NCBI GenBank assembly: GCA_958295525.1
Contig: OY282355.1
Location: forward strand, 586,260 to 650,259
Direction of reading: 5' to 3'
From: an uncultured Dehalococcoidia bacterium
Lineage (GTDB): Bacteria > Chloroflexota > Dehalococcoidia > Lucifugimonadales > Australimonadaceae
Length of the DNA: 64,000 nt
Positions 5,300 through 49,657 of this stretch are shown here, one piece after another (the stretch's first letter is position 1; each line of letters begins with the position of its first letter). The position numbers and the translations under genes are program-made. The notes under the pieces are model-generated. The model did no database searches, was not told the DNA's origin, and saw nothing but the letters and a program-made list of their open reading frames with translations.

Positions 5300-5305
5300 A
5301 TTGTA
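5300..5305 (-). promoter_or_regulatory. -10 element for a probable leaderless decarboxylase mRNA
   Basis: TACAAT on the minus strand, nine bases before the ATG at 5290. No Shine-Dalgarno motif lies in between and no convincing -35 is seen. The spacing would put the transcript start at or within a few bases of the start codon. Confidence 0.45.
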
Positions 5306-5354
5306 CCGCAAACCGCCGCGCTCGTCCGCTACGCAACGCGCCTCGGCGTTCGCC

Positions 5355-5360
5355 TATAAT
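5355..5360 (+). promoter_or_regulatory. -10 element upstream of the translin-like gene
   Basis: A perfect TATAAT hexamer about 75 bases before the translin-like start codon at 5436. No good -35 is visible at the usual distance. It and the minus-strand TACAAT at 5300-5305 make this a divergent promoter region. Confidence 0.5.
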
Positions 5361-5435
5361 GGCCGCGATGACGACGATGACGCTCCATCAGCCGCGAATG
5401 GCCGGTTGCGCGCGGACGCGCCGCGGGAGCGGCGG

Positions 5436-6086
5436 ATGACCAGCGAACGGCAAGCGCGCGCGCAAGAGCGGATAGAGGAGATCGCCGACCTCGCGCTGGA
5501 CGAGTTCCGCCGCAAGCACGAGTTGCGCGAGCAGGCGATCCGCGTCTCCCGCGAGGTCGTTCGGGCCTCCGCCAACGCGATCCGGGCCGTCCATCGCGGG
5601 GAACTGGCGCAGGCGCGCGAACTCGTCGAGACCGCAGGCGCGCACGTCCGCGAAACGCGGGAGACGCTCGCCGGCCATCCCGACCTCTACTTCACCGGCT
5701 ACACGCAGGACGCGCAGAAGGAGTACGCCGAGGCGCGCGCCGTGCTCGCCTTTATCGCGGCGGAGGAACTCCCGGGCCCGGGGGACATCGGCGTGGAGAC
5801 CCCGGCCTACCTCAACGGACTCGCCGAGGCCGCGAGCGAACTGCGGCGCTGCATCCTCGACGCTCTGCGGCGCGGCGACGACTCCCGCGTCGAGGAGTTG
5901 ATGGCCGCGATGGACGACGTCTACAACATTCTCGTCGTGATGGATTTCCCCGACGCGCTCACCTCCGGCTTGCGCCGGACGACCGACCAGTTGCGCGGCG
6001 TGTTGGAGCGGACGCGCGGCGATCTCACGATGACGCTCCGCCAGCGCCGCTTGGAGCGCCTGCTCAGCGGGCAGGCGGAGGGGTGA
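5436..6086 (+). CDS. Translin-family protein
   Basis: A 216-residue, almost wholly alpha-helical protein of the translin/TRAX family. Recognisable features are the first helix rich in Arg/Glu (ERQARAQERIEEIADLAL), the helix REQAIRVSREVVRASANAI, and the C-terminal YNILVVMDFPDALTSGLRR, which matches the conserved translin segment ending in 'FPxALTxGLRRxxD'. Eukaryotic translin forms octamers that bind and cleave RNA (C3PO with TRAX); bacterial and archaeal members are poorly studied. The start at 5436 is preceded by GGGAG six bases away; the longer ORF from 5301 adds low-complexity Asp/Arg sequence and is rejected. It is transcribed toward the minus-strand helicase gene, with which it converges. 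Confidence 0.8.
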   Translation: MTSERQARAQERIEEIADLALDEFRRKHELREQAIRVSREVVRASANAIRAVHRGELAQARELVETAGAHVRETRETLAGHPDLYFTGYTQDAQKEYAEARAVLAFIAAEELPGPGDIGVETPAYLNGLAEAASELRRCILDALRRGDDSRVEELMAAMDDVYNILVVMDFPDALTSGLRRTTDQLRGVLERTRGDLTMTLRQRRLERLLSGQAEG

Positions 6087-6106
6087 GGGGGGCTAGGAGC
6101 GGGGAA

Positions 6107-8374
6107 TCAGGGGCGCGAGTTGCGGGCCGCCGCGAGAGCCGCTTGCAAGGCTTCGTCAATGCGCGCGCCGCGCCGCTTGAAGCCGAGTTCTTTCCGGATC
6201 TCGGCCATTAGGTCCTCGTCGGTGCGGAGGAGCGTGTCCGAGAGAACCCATTGCGCCAGCGAGACGAGTTTCCTGTGCGAGTACTCGCCTATGGAGTAGC
6301 CAGGCAAGATTGGCGGCCTGGGCCCACGCGCAGGCGCAGGAGCCGGGGCGGAAGGAGCGGCGTGAGGCTGCGTTGGAGCGCCTTCTTCGGGCGAACTGCG
6401 GTCATCGCCCGCCTCGTCTTTGCGGTTCGCCCTGTTGACCGCTTGTTCCCACGCCTCCACTGCTCGCCCCAGTTCTTCGTCGCGGTTCTTGAACCAGTTG
6501 GTTGACCAGATGCGATGGAACGTCCAGCCTCTGGCCTCCAGTTGCTCTTGCCGGAGGCGGTCGCGCTCGCGGGCGGTGCTGCCGGAGTGATAACTCGCGC
6601 CATCGGCTTCTATGGCCAAAACCATCCGTCCCGGCTGGTTGGGGTGAGCGCAGGCGAAATCTATCCGGTAGCCCGATACGCCGTATTGCGGCGTCACCGG
6701 GATTCCGCGCTCTTCCAGCCGGCTCTGCACGTCCAACTCGAAAGCGTTGAGCGGAACGTCGCTCATCGCCGTTCCCAACTCGGCTCCGCCCGACGCGGCG
6801 AACTCCAAGTACCGGCGCAGCAGTTGGACCCCTCTCTTATCCGACCGGTCCGGGTCCATATCGTGATGCGAGAACGACGAAACCACGTGCATCCGCAAGC
6901 GGGCGCGGGTTACGGCGACATTGAGCCGCCGCTCGCCGCCATCTTGGTTGAGCGGCCCGAACCGGTACGGCAGCGAACCGTTGGCGTCTTTGTGATAGCC
7001 GACGCTGAGGATGATGACGTCGCGCTCGTCGCCCTGGACGCGCTCGATGTTCTTCACGAAAAAGCGCTCGTCCGCGCCATCGCTGAAGAATTCCTCCAGC
7101 GCGGGATCCGCCAAATCCCGCAGGCGAAGGCGCAACGCCTCCTCGATGTTGTTGGCGTGCTGGATTCCGAAAGCGATAACGCCCAGCGACTCGTTGGAAT
7201 GCTCGCGCGCGTGCTCTACGGCCATATCCACCACCTTCGCCACCTCGTCCGGGTGGGAGAAGGTACGTCGCTGCGGAACGGAACGGAACGGAACGAGATG
7301 GTGAAACAGCGACACGCCTTCGGCGGCGTCAGGGAACGCCGTTAGGGACTCTCCGTAGAGATGGGAGTTGGAGAAGGCTATTAAACGCCCGTCTTTGCTT
7401 CGGTAATGCCATTGCAAGAGTTTTTCTCGAAGAGCGCCTGTCTTGGCGACTTGCAGAATAGACTCGACATCATCAGATAAGATGATGCTCTGCGCGTCAT
7501 CCTCCTCGTCTTCGTTTTCATCCTCTCCGCCGCTGCTGAAGAAGGTTGTCGGCGGGAGTTGGCGATCGTCTCCCGCGATGACCGCCAGCGGAGCCCGGGC
7601 GAGGCTGCCCATCGCCTCGGCGGGCGGAACCTGCGACGCCTCATCGAAGATAACCACATCGAACAAATTCGCTTCGGCAGGCGTCATTTCCGCCACGAGC
7701 AATGGAGACATTGTCCAGCAGGGGCGGATTGCAGTAAGCACATGCGGGGCTTCCCGGAACAGTCGACGAACTGGCAAATGCCGGGTTTTCTTCGCGGCTT
7801 CGCGTTTTATGAGACTCTCCTCGGAAGGGTAGGCGTTCATCATACGCACGGCGTGCTCAGCGGCTCGCCGCTTGACGCGCTCCGCTGTGCTTGCCAGGTG
7901 TCTCTTGTCGAGTTCAACGAAACTGCGGTGATGGCGACTGTGAAGATTTGTAGTGAATCCAGCAATGGCGAATGACAGTTCGCTCCATATCGTGTTCAGC
8001 CAAGAATGCTCTACGGCCTCCCCCGCGTATTCGGATGGAAACTGCTGTCCCGTCTCCGTGAGGATGTGGTCAACACCGACTTCTTTGAATTTGCGCTCCA
8101 ATTCCCGGATGCGCGGCAAATTCGCCGCTGCCTCCTCTTGGGACGCTAAGCGGCTCATAATTTCTAGCAGCCTGCCGGCTGGCTCGTCGAGGAGATGGAC
8201 GAGCAAGAAAATTCGCTCCGCTTCCTCCAGCAACTGCGTTAAGGAATCCACCTCTGAAAGCGCGTCACTGAGACCTGCGGGAACACGAGGAGCGCCCTGC
8301 CCGCCGCGTTCCTGGTATTGCGCTAACCGATCCCTTACTTCACTGAGCGCGTTCAATAGGTCGAGGTCCGACAT
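6107..8374 (-). CDS. Hhe-like DUF4011 helicase-nuclease, C-terminal half (separate frame)
   Basis: A 755-residue ORF holding the second half of a large superfamily-1 helicase. A helical region (1-210) leads to the Walker B-like VVIFDEASQVPP (about 242-253) and GDDRQLPPTTFF (268-279). ERVQGDERDVIILSVGYH and LNVAVTRARLRMHVVSS are motifs V and VI. Next comes a Vsr/PD-(D/E)XK-type nuclease domain (about 545-645: YRIDFACAHP, VLAIEADGASYH, RGWTFHRIWSTNWF), then a short C-terminal helical domain. This order matches DUF4011-helicase-Vsr (Hhe) proteins reported as antiphage. It lacks Walker A, which is in the preceding ORF; a -1 shift near 8375 would join both into about 1,340 residues. Base composition is less GC-rich than its neighbours, suggesting transfer. 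Confidence 0.85.
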   Translation of the reverse strand: MSDLDLLNALSEVRDRLAQYQERGGQGAPRVPAGLSDALSEVDSLTQLLEEAERIFLLVHLLDEPAGRLLEIMSRLASQEEAAANLPRIRELERKFKEVGVDHILTETGQQFPSEYAGEAVEHSWLNTIWSELSFAIAGFTTNLHSRHHRSFVELDKRHLASTAERVKRRAAEHAVRMMNAYPSEESLIKREAAKKTRHLPVRRLFREAPHVLTAIRPCWTMSPLLVAEMTPAEANLFDVVIFDEASQVPPAEAMGSLARAPLAVIAGDDRQLPPTTFFSSGGEDENEDEEDDAQSIILSDDVESILQVAKTGALREKLLQWHYRSKDGRLIAFSNSHLYGESLTAFPDAAEGVSLFHHLVPFRSVPQRRTFSHPDEVAKVVDMAVEHAREHSNESLGVIAFGIQHANNIEEALRLRLRDLADPALEEFFSDGADERFFVKNIERVQGDERDVIILSVGYHKDANGSLPYRFGPLNQDGGERRLNVAVTRARLRMHVVSSFSHHDMDPDRSDKRGVQLLRRYLEFAASGGAELGTAMSDVPLNAFELDVQSRLEERGIPVTPQYGVSGYRIDFACAHPNQPGRMVLAIEADGASYHSGSTARERDRLRQEQLEARGWTFHRIWSTNWFKNRDEELGRAVEAWEQAVNRANRKDEAGDDRSSPEEGAPTQPHAAPSAPAPAPARGPRPPILPGYSIGEYSHRKLVSLAQWVLSDTLLRTDEDLMAEIRKELGFKRRGARIDEALQAALAAARNSRP

Positions 8375-10137
8375 GCCTTGACCATGGAGCGCATCTCGCG
8401 CCGTGTCTCTGGCGTTCGGTACGCCGACGAGAACATAGACGCAAAGAGCCTTTGGAGATATTGCCTCGCGGGCGCAAGCGCAGCCTGAGCGGAGGCGAGA
8501 TCAATTTCGTAGGCTTTGCGACCGTAGCGCGCTTGGAACTGTTGCTCTTCCGACAACCATTTCAGCGCCTTACGCCAGTCAGCCACCGTGCTCGGAAAAG
8601 GCAGTCCTGCCTCCTCAAGCGCAGCATTGACGATGCGCTGCGACTCGGACAGACGTCCGTCGGCGAGGTCTCGCACCAGCGCGAACGCTTCACGCGTTTC
8701 CTGTTCCGTCGATACGGTGGAATTAGCCCATTCAAGGTAGTCGGCGCGAAGGGAATGCCCGCCAATACCCACCCAATGCTGAATATCCAACTTCAGATCG
8801 GGCAGCATTGCGCTAATCAACGTCTTACCCTGCCCCTGCATTCGGATATTCGTTCGAGCAGGCTCTGGAACGGCCAGCAAGCGTGTTTGCAAATCAAATA
8901 GGCTGATTCCCCAAGGCTTTCGAATTTCATGCATCGCATCTTTGTGAGCGACCAAGTAGTCGCGAGATCTCGAAAGGTTGCTGTGCCACCCCGGAGCGTT
9001 TTGCACAGGGATCGTTTGTATCTTACGTATCGAACCGTCTATGCTTTGGGCGAATTCGCGCTTGGATTTGATGCCGCCGTGCGCATCCATCACTAAGTCG
9101 GACAAGCCCGCCTTATCCAAGCGAGCGACGACTACGTCGATAGCCGCCCGCTTCTCAGCCACGAAGAGAACCCGCTTCCCATCGGCGACTAATGACGCGA
9201 TCAGGTTGGCGATGGTCTGAGACTTGCCTGTTCCGGGCGGCCCCCAGATCACTAGCGACTCCCTTCCGAGAATGCGGTTGATCGCACGGTGCTGGCTCGA
9301 GTCGGCATCCATAATAAGGAACTCCGACTCAGGAGCGTCATAATCGGGTTCATTAGGGGACGGGTCGCATATCTTGGTGGCCAACGCTTTCCGGGCATCC
9401 GCGTCCCCCGCAATGGCGGCCACGAGATCGTTGCGCGCGAAGGCGTCTAGGCTTTTTTCGAGATCGGCGACCATCGGCATATTCGCGTACCGGAAGTTGC
9501 CGAGCACGAACCTCGGCTCAATGGCAAGGCCCCGAGCCTTGCTCCACTCCGCCTCGAACTCTTTCAGAAGACGTTTGATTTCACGATGCGAATCCGGCGT
9601 CGCGTCGCCGATTGCCTCTTCGTCAACGGACAAATCCAAGCCATGCTGCGATTCGAGGACATGAACGAGCACGGGGTTGAGGCTAGGCTCGCCGGATTGC
9701 TCAATGACGAACTCCCATCTCCCTGCGCCGTCGGGTTCGATTTCGATGGGAACCAGAATGACCGGAGCACGCGGCTCGGAGCCTGAGTCCACTGTCCATT
9801 CGGCTAACCCGACGCCGAGGAAGAGGGTGCTCAGTCCCTTCTCCTCCAAGTTTCCCCGCGCTTGCTTGTGGATCGCCGAGAATCGCCTGCGGGCATCTTT
9901 CTGGGGCTCTTCGTTCCGGAGCAGTCCGTCGTCGCCAGCGGGGAACAACGCCGTCATACGGACTTGCTTGCCGGCGAGCAGCGCATCGAGGACGCGAGCG
10001 TCCATTCCCGAATCTTGCCCCGGCGTCAGGTCAATGGTTCCCGTCTTGAGGTCTCGGTAGCTGAGAAGGCGGTTGCGGCCGGAGACGTCGACCAGTTCCT
10101 TCTTCCAACGCTCCGCCGCGCGGCGGAGCGCGTCCAT
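8353..10137 (-). CDS. Hhe-like DUF4011 helicase-nuclease, N-terminal half
   Basis: A 594-residue ORF. The N-terminus (WKKELVDVSGRNRLLSYRDL) is the typical opening of DUF4011 proteins, followed by the DUF4011 region to about residue 230 and a helicase ATPase with Walker A GPPGTGKSQTIANLI (near 300) and VLFVAEKRAAIDVV (motif Ia). It ends at 8353 just after the segment LFASMFSSAYR, which in full-length relatives continues into the region encoded by the next ORF. The two ORFs overlap by 22 bases and differ by a -1 frame. This could be a frameshift mutation, an assembly error, or translation as two chains. No slippery heptamer is obvious. An upstream promoter is annotated separately. Predicted role: DNA-targeting phage defence. 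Confidence 0.83.
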   Translation of the reverse strand: MDALRRAAERWKKELVDVSGRNRLLSYRDLKTGTIDLTPGQDSGMDARVLDALLAGKQVRMTALFPAGDDGLLRNEEPQKDARRRFSAIHKQARGNLEEKGLSTLFLGVGLAEWTVDSGSEPRAPVILVPIEIEPDGAGRWEFVIEQSGEPSLNPVLVHVLESQHGLDLSVDEEAIGDATPDSHREIKRLLKEFEAEWSKARGLAIEPRFVLGNFRYANMPMVADLEKSLDAFARNDLVAAIAGDADARKALATKICDPSPNEPDYDAPESEFLIMDADSSQHRAINRILGRESLVIWGPPGTGKSQTIANLIASLVADGKRVLFVAEKRAAIDVVVARLDKAGLSDLVMDAHGGIKSKREFAQSIDGSIRKIQTIPVQNAPGWHSNLSRSRDYLVAHKDAMHEIRKPWGISLFDLQTRLLAVPEPARTNIRMQGQGKTLISAMLPDLKLDIQHWVGIGGHSLRADYLEWANSTVSTEQETREAFALVRDLADGRLSESQRIVNAALEEAGLPFPSTVADWRKALKWLSEEQQFQARYGRKAYEIDLASAQAALAPARQYLQRLFASMFSSAYRTPETRREMRSMVKACRTSTY

Positions 10138-10172
10138 TCGCGTGTTGCTCGGATTCTCTGCATTGCTGCGGC

Positions 10173-10201
10173 TTTATACCACCTTCGAGGCGCCTCCGCA
10201 A
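10173..10201 (-). promoter_or_regulatory. Sigma-70-type promoter for the Hhe-like gene
   Basis: On the minus strand TTGCGG (10201-10196), a 17-base spacer and TATAAA (10178-10173). The predicted transcript start is near 10166, about 30 bases before the ATG at 10137. Confidence 0.55.
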
Positions 10202-10248
10202 GGCGCGGATGCCGGTTGTCCCGCTCGCCGCCCTCATCCATCCCATGG

Positions 10249-10278: not shown

Positions 10279-10342
10279 ATGCCGTTAGCGGAAAAACAAG
10301 CGGGGAGCGCGCGGCGCCGCCCTGCGCAGGAGGATGCAACCG

Positions 10343-12415
10343 ATGGAAGGCCTCATACTGGCCATCGTCGCGGGCGTGGTCGCGCTCGCGTTCGCCGGAT
10401 TTCTCGCTATGCGCGTGCTCGCAGCCGACGAAGGCTCCGACCGGATGAAGGAGATTGGCGCGGCTATTCAGGAGGGCGCCAACGCCTTCCTCAAGCGCGA
10501 GTACACCGTCCTCGCCGGATTCGTCGTCATCGTGTTCATCGTCCTCTTCGTTCTGGGCGTCGTCCGCGAGGAGCAGGACGAGATGACGGCGGTCGCCTAT
10601 CTCGTCGGGGCCGCCGCGTCCGCGCTGGCGGGCTTCGTCGGCATGCGGATCGCCGTCAAGTCCAATATGCGGACGGCGTCGGCGGCGCGAACCGGACTGA
10701 ACCGCGCTTTGCGCGTCGCGTTCTCCAGCGGCGGCGTGATGGGCGTCACCGTCGTCGGCATCGGGCTGCTCGGCGCAGTCATCCTTTGGATGATCTTCGA
10801 GGATCCGAACATCGTCGCCGGCTTCTCGTTCGGCGCGTCCAGCATCGCGCTGTTCGCCCGCGTGGGCGGCGGCATCTACACGAAAGCCGCCGACGTCGGC
10901 GGCGACCTCGCGGGGAAGGTCGAGGCGGGCATTCCCGAGGACGATCCCCGGAACGCCGCCGTCATCGCCGACAACGTGGGCGACAACGTGGGCGACGTCG
11001 CAGGAATGGGCGCCGACCTTTTCGAGTCCTACGTAGGCTCCATCGTGGCGAGCCTCGCGCTCGCCGCCACAGGGACGGCGTTCCTCATCGGGATAGACGA
11101 CCCGTCGCGCGTGCCCATCACCGCCGAGTCGGGGCTGGCCGTGCTGCCGTTCGTCATCGCCGCCGTCGGCATCGCGGCGTCCATCATCGGCACGTTCCTC
11201 GTCCGCACGGGGGAGACGACCAGCATCGGCAGTTTGCTGTGGTCGCTGCGGCGCGGCATATTCGCGGCGGGCGCCCTCGCGCTCATCGGCTCGTTCGGCG
11301 CGGTCTACTGGATGCTGGAAGTCAGCGCAGGGCTTGGCATAGCGAAAGTCTGGCAGATGTGGGGCGCGATCGCCGTCGGGCTGGGGGCGGGCGTCATCAT
11401 CGGCGTCAGCACCGAGTACTACACGAGTTACGAATACCGCCCGACGAAAGGCATCGCGGGACGCTCCACAACCGGCCCGGCGACCGTCATCATCAGCGGA
11501 TTCGCAACCGGAATGCTGAGCACGGTCATTCCGCTGATCGTCATCGCCGCCGCCGTGATCGGGGCGCACCAACTCGCCGGACTCTACGGGATCGCCATCG
11601 CCGCCGTGGGGATGCTCTCCACGTTGGGCATCACGCTCGCCACCGACGCCTACGGCCCCGTGGCCGACAACGCGGGAGCCATCGCCGAGCAGGCGCATCT
11701 CGACCCTGAGGTGCGGGAGCGGACGGACGCGCTCGACTCGCTGGGCAACACGACGGCGGCAACGGGCAAGGGATTCGCCATCGGCTCGGCGGTGCTCACG
11801 TCGCTCGCGCTGATGGCCGCCTACGCCAACGTCGTCGGCCTGAGCGCCATTGACCTGCTCGAGGTGTCGACGCTCGTCGGGCTGCTGATCGGGGCGCTGA
11901 TGCCGTTCGTGTTCAGCGCGCTGACGATGGAGGCCGTTGGCCGCGCCGCGCAGGATATGGTGCAAGAGGTGCGGCGTCAGTTCAACGAAATCCCCGGGCT
12001 GCGCGAGGGCAAGGAGGGCGCGCGGGCCGAATACGCCCGCTGCGTGGACATCAGCACGAAAGGCGCGCTGCGGGAGATGATCCTCCCTGGCCTGCTCGCC
12101 GTCGTCGTCCCCATCGCCGTCGGCGTCACGCCGTTCCTGGGCAAGGAGGCCGTGGGCGGCCTGCTGATCGGCGCCATCGCGGCGGGCTCGCTGCTGGCCA
12201 TCACCATGGCGAATTCCGGCGGGGCGTGGGACAACGCCAAGAAGTACATCGAGGCGGGCGCGCACGGCGGCAAGGGCACGGACGAGCACGCTGCGGCGGT
12301 CGTCGGCGACACCGTGGGCGACCCGTTCAAGGACACCTCCGGCCCCTCGCTCAACATTCTCATCAAACTGATGTCCATCGTCGCCGTCGTGTTCGGCACG
12401 GTGTTCGCGGGCTAG
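10343..12415 (+). CDS. hppA: Membrane-bound ion-translocating pyrophosphatase, K+-dependent type
   Basis: About 690 residues with some 16 membrane helices, hydrolysing PPi to pump H+ and/or Na+. Diagnostic segments are DVGGDLAGKVEAGIPEDDPR (substrate loop), IADNVGDNVGDVAGMGADLF, and C-terminal GDTVGDPFKDTSGPSLNILI. In GNTTAATGKG the position that is Lys in K+-independent enzymes is Ala, which marks the K+-dependent class. An ATG at 10334 directly abuts AGGAGG, whereas the ATG at 10343 lies nine bases from it, so the latter is preferred. Sequence alone does not settle whether the pumped ion is Na+ or H+. The gene is monocistronic, ending at a strong hairpin. Confidence 0.95.
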   Translation: MEGLILAIVAGVVALAFAGFLAMRVLAADEGSDRMKEIGAAIQEGANAFLKREYTVLAGFVVIVFIVLFVLGVVREEQDEMTAVAYLVGAAASALAGFVGMRIAVKSNMRTASAARTGLNRALRVAFSSGGVMGVTVVGIGLLGAVILWMIFEDPNIVAGFSFGASSIALFARVGGGIYTKAADVGGDLAGKVEAGIPEDDPRNAAVIADNVGDNVGDVAGMGADLFESYVGSIVASLALAATGTAFLIGIDDPSRVPITAESGLAVLPFVIAAVGIAASIIGTFLVRTGETTSIGSLLWSLRRGIFAAGALALIGSFGAVYWMLEVSAGLGIAKVWQMWGAIAVGLGAGVIIGVSTEYYTSYEYRPTKGIAGRSTTGPATVIISGFATGMLSTVIPLIVIAAAVIGAHQLAGLYGIAIAAVGMLSTLGITLATDAYGPVADNAGAIAEQAHLDPEVRERTDALDSLGNTTAATGKGFAIGSAVLTSLALMAAYANVVGLSAIDLLEVSTLVGLLIGALMPFVFSALTMEAVGRAAQDMVQEVRRQFNEIPGLREGKEGARAEYARCVDISTKGALREMILPGLLAVVVPIAVGVTPFLGKEAVGGLLIGAIAAGSLLAITMANSGGAWDNAKKYIEAGAHGGKGTDEHAAAVVGDTVGDPFKDTSGPSLNILIKLMSIVAVVFGTVFAG

Positions 12416-48922: not shown

Positions 48923-49657
48923 CTAGCCCGTCGCCAGCAGCGCGGCGCCGGAGACGAGCATCACGCCCTCCACTGCGTAGACGAACGCGCGCTCAGGCAC
49001 GCGGCGGACGATGCGCGCCCCGGCATAGGCGCCGACGGCCATAATGAGCCCAATGCCCGAGGCGATGAGGAACGTTTCGATTGTGAGGAGCGCAAATCCG
49101 CCGTAGACGACGGCTTTGGCGATGCTGACGAGGAACGTTCCGGCGGCCACGGTGCCGACGAAGGCGTTTTTCGAGAGGCCGTAGGCCATAAAGAAGTGCG
49201 CTCCGAACGGGCCCGCGCCCCCGAAGACAGCGGAGAAGAAGCCCTGCCCGACGCCGACCGCCGCGAGCGCGCGCAACGGCACGGCCTTTCCCGCCGCGAT
49301 AGGCAAATGGCGGTAGGCCACGAGCGCCAGCAGGAACGCGCCAAGCCCGCGCGCCAGCAAGTCGGTGGGGAGGTAGGCGAACACGGCGGCGCCGAGCGCG
49401 GCGGCGGGAACCGCTCCGAGGCTGTACCAGCGGACGGCGCGCCAGTCTATGTAATCGCGGTTGGCGGCGCAGCGCGAAAGCGTGTTGAAGAGCATCGCCA
49501 CGGTGATGATCGGAACGGCGAGGCGGACGCCGAACGCGAACGCGAGCACGGGGATGGCGATGATGCCTGTGCTCATTCCGGTGACGCCGCCGATGACCGC
49601 CGCCAGCAGCGAGGTCGCCGCGACGACCGCCGCGAGCGGCGCGCTGATCTCCGGCAT
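48923..49657 (-). CDS. TSUP-family (TauE/SafE) permease, paralogue
   Basis: A 244-residue paralogue of the next gene. It shares GVTGMSTGIIAIPVLAFAFG, VGQGFFSAVFGGAGPFGAHF and SERAFVYAVEGVMLVSGAAL-like segments with it, and so arose by tandem duplication. About eight membrane helices. It sits between leuB (ten bases upstream) and the second TSUP gene, so both may be in the leuB transcript; no functional link to leucine synthesis is known. Confidence 0.88.
   Translation of the reverse strand: MPEISAPLAAVVAATSLLAAVIGGVTGMSTGIIAIPVLAFAFGVRLAVPIITVAMLFNTLSRCAANRDYIDWRAVRWYSLGAVPAAALGAAVFAYLPTDLLARGLGAFLLALVAYRHLPIAAGKAVPLRALAAVGVGQGFFSAVFGGAGPFGAHFFMAYGLSKNAFVGTVAAGTFLVSIAKAVVYGGFALLTIETFLIASGIGLIMAVGAYAGARIVRRVPERAFVYAVEGVMLVSGAALLATG

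What the first reader, a model, noticed from the sequence alone, without database searches (positions are those of the whole stretch)
6107..10137. Hhe-like DUF4011-helicase-Vsr defence gene split by a -1 frame change
Two overlapping minus-strand ORFs together give the full domain order DUF4011, SF1 helicase, Vsr-like nuclease, C-terminal helix, as in the Hhe antiphage proteins. Walker A is in the first ORF and Walker B in the second, so neither half is a full ATPase. The split falls in the helical region after LFASMFSSAYR. It may be inactivated, translated by frameshifting or work as two chains.
Basis: partly seen in the sequence, partly recalled or inferred. Interest (0 to 1): 0.6.

Follow-up and report, generated by a model that had tools for sequence, protein, structure and literature searches.

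The report
Phage-defence gene broken by frame change
A Chloroflexota bacterium carries, at a chromosomal spot where its relatives swap foreign cargo, a probable anti-phage helicase-nuclease gene that is one protein in all 11 intact relatives but is cut in two here by a single change of reading frame, most likely a very recent loss of function and otherwise ordinary.

Summary
The two ORFs are real and together make one DUF4011 / UPF1-like SF1 helicase / MTES_1575 (Vsr-like) nuclease protein. All 11 close orthologues found (3 Chloroflexota, 8 Micromonosporaceae; 1337-1398 aa frames) are single ORFs. The overlap holds no slippery heptamer, stimulatory fold or homopolymer of 4 or more. Control gene pairs from the same assembly (about 60 kb) show no other break, so an assembly error is possible but not favoured. 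All helicase and nuclease motifs are intact, and invariant columns have decayed no more than in intact orthologues, so the break is very recent, an error, or tolerated. The best family is PADLOC PDC-S37, a candidate defence family; Hhe and ProA cut-offs are missed even by intact orthologues. The gene has low GC and sits between ORF5301 and hppA, a site empty in three related genomes and filled with other cargo in four. Best reading: a horizontally acquired, single-gene defence candidate, recently inactivated by a frameshift. By-product: the hotspot, where a second species' cargo gene is also frame-broken.

The parts
8413..10137 (-). 5' part of the gene in its proper frame: DUF4011 (residues 15-161), first part of SF1 helicase RecA1 with Walker A GPPGTGK, start of the helical insertion
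   Evidence: Pfam PF13195 E 3.5e-18, AAA_11 E 1.8e-12; 42-52% identity to the intact Chloroflexota orthologues
8403..8421 (-). frame-change interval (net one base short relative to intact orthologues)
   Evidence: crossover scan against L021, L012 and L023; no slippery heptamer and no homopolymer of 4 or more
8353..8402 (-). out-of-frame tail of ORF1 ending in a stop
   Evidence: does not match the Chloroflexota orthologues, whereas the other frame (ARDTARDALHGQGMSDLDLL) does
6107..8412 (-). 3' part of the gene in its proper frame (ATG-initiated ORF2 is 6107-8374): rest of helical insertion, Walker B DEASQ, motifs III-VI, MTES_1575 nuclease, C-terminal helical tail
   Evidence: AAA_11, AAA_12, PF18741 E 4.9e-33; 54-63% identity to intact Chloroflexota orthologues
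6087..10247 (.). DNA inserted between ORF5301 and hppA (approximate ends); low GC (57-60%) against 66-70% around it
   Evidence: empty site of 150-170 bp in G002, G004, G009; GC dip; GC3 0.69-0.72 against 0.88-0.91 in neighbours
5301..6086 (+). left flank of the hotspot: ORF5301, conserved in genus and family (weak Translin-like match)
   Evidence: 69-83% identity in seven relatives
10334..12415 (+). right flank of the hotspot: hppA, H+-translocating pyrophosphatase
   Evidence: PF03030 E 3.5e-263; 79-96% identity in relatives

Best explanation
The gene is a horizontally acquired, stand-alone anti-phage candidate of the PDC-S37/DUF4011 group, inserted between ORF5301 and hppA. Intact, it would be one ~1,340-aa protein: a DUF4011 N-terminus, a UPF1-like SF1 helicase motor with a long helical insertion inside RecA1, and a C-terminal MTES_1575 PD-(D/E)XK-type nuclease. 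I infer that it loads on and moves along foreign nucleic acid using ATP and cuts it. In this genome a single frame change in the middle of the helical insertion ends translation there, separating Walker A from Walker B, so the ATPase, and with it the defence, is most likely lost. The break is recent, because neither half has otherwise decayed. Shown here: anatomy, intact orthologues, position of the break, insertion site, absence of further decay. Inferred: defence function, mechanism, loss of function.
For: Intact single-ORF orthologues in 3 Chloroflexota and 8 Micromonosporaceae. Frame change placed by homology. No slippery site and no stimulatory structure. All catalytic motifs kept, and 20 deviations at otherwise invariant columns against 17, 21 and 23 in intact orthologues. 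No other frame break in 37.8 kb of the window nor in 22 gene pairs (25 kb) from elsewhere in the assembly. Variable insertion site and foreign GC. Defence-type neighbours of orthologues: type IIG RM beside L012, HsdM and mad2/mad3-like genes beside Micromonosporaceae copies. A 5'-truncated copy in SAR202 bin22 shows that the family does decay.
Against: No reads could be inspected, so an assembly error remains open. The lack of any second lesion is also what an error or a functional split would show. The antiphage role rests on family membership and neighbourhood only.
Confidence: 0.62

Rival explanations
1. Assembly or consensus error: the gene is intact in the organism and one base was lost in the single-contig genome sequence.
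For: One isolated one-base frame change in an otherwise undecayed gene with every motif intact. The genome is one 2.5 Mb contig, which suggests long reads, where indels are the usual error (inference).
Against: No other frame break in about 60 kb of control coding sequence compared with congeners. The interval holds no homopolymer of 4 or more, the commonest indel context.
Confidence: 0.22
2. The two ORFs make two polypeptides that assemble into a working helicase-nuclease, a natural split enzyme.
For: Both halves undecayed. The break lies in a poorly conserved, low-confidence part of the all-helical insertion, where a chain break could be tolerated. ORF2 begins with an ATG inside the overlap.
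Against: No homologue has this layout: all close orthologues and the order-wide set are single ORFs apart from contig-end fragments and one truncated copy. No purine-rich ribosome-binding site at normal spacing before the ORF2 ATG. ORF1 ends in out-of-frame sequence. A RecA1 fold would have to form from two chains.
Confidence: 0.08
3. A full-length protein is made by programmed or leaky -1 frameshifting.
For: The frames overlap by about 148 bases and the shift has the right direction.
Against: No XXXYYYZ heptamer in the overlap, RNA fold no better than shuffles (z -0.17), no Rfam element, no homologue with the shift.
Confidence: 0.04
4. Reversible on/off switching or population heterogeneity: the assembled sequence is the off form of a gene that toggles.
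For: Undecayed off-frame gene. A cargo gene in the same hotspot of another species is also frame-broken once.
Against: No simple repeat or homopolymer at the break that could slip.
Confidence: 0.04

Closest known systems
PADLOC PDC-S37 (PDLC05009), phage defence candidate
   Same: Best profile of both halves (242 + 664 bits) and of intact orthologues (about 900 bits); same domain order
   Different: Compact subgroup of ~1,340 aa against a profile of 1,550; the full-length PDC-S37 protein of G002 (L025) scores 1947 bits. Here split by a frame change. Candidate family; I found no paper on it.
ProA anti-phage protein (NCBIfam NF058533)
   Same: Best-scoring curated NCBIfam model; aligns over DUF4011, helicase and nuclease
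   Different: Scores about 840-890 in intact orthologues against a cut-off of 1500; profile of 1,903 aa
Hhe (NCBIfam NF042953, PADLOC PDLC02194; 'Gao Hhe' in defence tools, PMC11291487)
   Same: DUF4011, SF1 helicase and nuclease order
   Different: Scores about 630 against a cut-off of 2000 even in intact orthologues; about 450 residues shorter than the profile
UPF1/SMUBP-2 SF1 helicases (4b3f, 2xzl)
   Same: Closest solved relatives of the motor by sequence
   Different: No DUF4011, no nuclease, no long helical insertion of this kind (general knowledge of these structures)

Membership tests
PDC-S37 group | best match to the PDC-S37 profile over both ends | tested here: met
   profile 5-441 and 732-1446 of 1550; intact orthologues about 895-927 bits
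PDC-S37 group | single uninterrupted reading frame | tested here: not met
   two ORFs here, single ORF in all 11 close orthologues
PDC-S37 group | antiphage activity | not testable with these tools
   needs expression and plaque assays
Hhe | NCBIfam equivalog cut-off of 2000 bits | tested here: not met
   159 + 464 bits in halves, 624-635 bits in intact orthologues
Hhe | DUF4011 + SF1 helicase + Vsr-like nuclease order | tested here: met
ProA | NCBIfam equivalog cut-off of 1500 bits | tested here: not met
   272 + 589 bits in halves, 838-888 bits in intact orthologues
programmed -1 frameshift gene | slippery X XXY YYZ heptamer in the overlap | tested here: not met
   none in 8510-8345
programmed -1 frameshift gene | downstream stimulatory RNA structure | tested here: not met
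   z -0.17; simple fold only, pseudoknots not modelled
two-subunit version | same split conserved in other genomes | tested here: not met
   no case in 250 and 247 genomes of the order nor in 11 loci from genome contigs

The most novel reading that the evidence does not exclude
A natural two-chain DUF4011 helicase-nuclease: the motor's RecA1 domain is formed from two polypeptides joined through the helical insertion, with ORF2 translated by coupling from the overlap.
Probability: 0.06. Interest if true: 0.55.

Novelty: new member of a known kind. Interest (0 to 1): 0.3.

Why it matters
It is a well-placed example of a freshly broken single-gene defence candidate, with its empty site and alternative cargo visible in related genomes. 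It defines a compact (~1,340 aa) subgroup of DUF4011 helicase-nucleases shared by Chloroflexota and Micromonosporaceae that existing Hhe and ProA cut-offs do not name. It also exposes an insertion hotspot (ORF5301-hppA) that can be mined for unknown defence modules.

Tried and rejected
Large internal deletion: suggested by profile gaps (PDC-S37 441 to 732) but rejected, because the compact orthologues have the same length. Phage or plasmid origin: no relative in viral contigs, one distant match in phage records, plasmid matches all under 60% identity. Mobile-element ends: no flanking repeat around this insert, unlike the inserts in G003 and G005. Split flags in the control scan (at 49652 and 62795; the latter again) are antisense or shadow frames, not broken genes. 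A structure model of the L021 helicase segment was weak (pLDDT 58, pTM 0.39), so I used only its secondary structure and ran no fold search. Papers on PDC-S37: none. DUF4011 appears in three papers, of which the defence-related one uses a DUF4011 gene as flank of a P. aeruginosa hotspot.

Full report
Observation. The window carries two minus-strand ORFs, 8353-10137 (594 aa) and 6107-8374 (755 aa), overlapping by 22 bases from the ORF2 ATG, with the second frame open from 8500. Pfam gives DUF4011 and the Walker A part of an SF1 helicase in the first, and the Walker B part, AAA_12 and an MTES_1575 nuclease in the second. Solved relatives of the motor are UPF1, NAM7 and SMUBP-2.

Host. The window lies in a 2.5 Mb single-contig genome. 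Its nearest named orthologues are in SAR202 and other Chloroflexota, two of which are also held as genomes of the same order, so the host belongs to that lineage (inference; the genome itself is unnamed).

Intact orthologues. Both halves match the same single ORFs elsewhere: L021 (1337 aa frame), L023 (1370) and L012 (1363) in Chloroflexota and eight Micromonosporaceae copies (1355-1398). Identity to the three Chloroflexota proteins is 43-51% in the N half and 54-63% in the C half. The four Chloroflexota proteins form a clade with support 100/100. Across about 250 genomes of the order, the frames matching the halves are single long ORFs except fragments on short contigs and a 5'-truncated copy in SAR202 bin22.

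Position and nature of the break. A scan of every possible crossover between the two frames against L021, L012 and L023 peaks at 8412-8415, with a plausible range of 8403-8421. The distant Micromonospora protein L013 does not resolve the position. The net change is one base short relative to intact copies. The joined region has 166 residues, exactly as in L021, so no domain is missing. I do not name a repairing base.

Programmed frameshift or error? The overlap holds no XXXYYYZ site and no homopolymer of four or more. The RNA folds no better than shuffles, and there is no Rfam element. Comparison of genes with the congener G004 and other relatives over 37.8 kb of the window found no real frame break, nor did 22 pairs (25 kb) drawn mostly from another 400 kb of the same contig. 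The error rate is therefore low, but an error here cannot be excluded without reads.

Age of the break. Walker A, motifs Ia to VI and the nuclease motifs are identical or conservatively changed. At columns invariant in all other members, the window protein deviates 20 times; the intact orthologues L021, L023 and L012 deviate 17, 21 and 23 times. There is no sign of relaxed selection, so the break is very young, or an error, or tolerated.

Structure. A model of the L021 helicase segment is poor overall (pTM 0.39), but between the strand after motif Ia and the Walker B strand it predicts almost only helices for about 450 residues, and the junction falls by alignment in its low-confidence part, residues 286-378. 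The split thus lies inside the RecA1 insertion; each half lacks part of the ATP site.

Insertion site. GC drops to 57-60% over the gene against 66-70% around it, and GC3 is 0.69-0.72 against 0.88-0.91 in hppA, cinA and the SDR gene. In G002, G004 and G009 ORF5301 and hppA are separated by only 150-170 bases. In other relatives the same gap holds other cargo: a three-gene module in G001 and G003, an XRE-M78 peptidase plus PIN-like pair in G005, and a 645-aa predicted protein in G014. The G003 and G005 inserts are flanked by a copy of the 3' end of ORF5301; the window's insert is not. This is an insertion hotspot, and the finding is one of its occupants.

Family. The best profile is PADLOC PDC-S37. 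ProA and Hhe equivalog cut-offs are missed by the halves and by intact orthologues alike. The same genome holds a second, intact DUF4011 helicase-nuclease frame of 1,895 aa near C1:240-246 kb, which is also closest to PDC-S37.

Mechanism. From the domain make-up I infer an ATP-driven helicase or translocase that delivers a PD-(D/E)XK-type nuclease to foreign nucleic acid, with DUF4011 as a sensing or binding part. Orthologues sit beside restriction-modification and other defence-like genes, which supports a defence role; activity is untested. With the frame broken, Walker A and Walker B are made on different chains or not made together, so inactivation is the simplest reading.

Verdict. A real, recent-looking frame break in an ordinary type of defence gene. 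Low to moderate interest. The hotspot and its unknown modules are the more useful by-product.

Noticed in passing
window 6087-10247; L048, L049, L050, L051, L056, L057, L058: Insertion hotspot between ORF5301 (Translin-like) and hppA: empty in G002, G004, G009 and filled with different cargo in G000, G001, G003, G005, G014.
   Followed up: partly
L056 923-4781 (-) and L050 4618-8474 (-): Unnamed three-gene module (257 aa, 844 aa with a GHKL-ATPase-like start by eye, 169 aa HARE-HTH) in two congeners; no Pfam or PADLOC match for the two larger proteins. Possible new defence module.
   Followed up: partly
L050 5998-6011 (-): In G003 the 844-aa gene of that module is itself split by a frame change (655 + 204 aa), a second frame-broken cargo gene at the same site.
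   Followed up: partly
L050 4588-4630 and 8569-8611; L058 (minus strand): The G003 and G005 inserts are flanked by a ~43 bp duplication of the 3' end of ORF5301, hinting at site-specific insertion that restores the gene end.
   Followed up: partly
L024 7829-13513 (-), G000:C1 about 240-246 kb: Second, intact DUF4011 helicase-nuclease frame (1,895 aa, with DUF3320) in the same genome.
   Followed up: partly
L020/L045; L020 7929-9185 (+): SAR202 bin22 holds a 5'-truncated copy (C-terminal 418 aa frame) besides its intact 1,363-aa frame.
   Followed up: partly
L015 10076-10912, L017 10043-10906, L013 10076-10954: In Micromonosporaceae the compact gene is followed directly by a conserved ~280-aa protein of no known family, perhaps a partner; not seen beside the Chloroflexota copies looked at.
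   Followed up: partly
L021 3061-11452: The closest orthologue (63% in the C half) sits between genes that read as hisG/hisD and hisC (recognised by eye, not tested), an odd place for a defence gene.
   Followed up: no
G002:C9:152-1243: A 423-aa N-terminal DUF4011 fragment at a contig end, not resolved.
   Followed up: no
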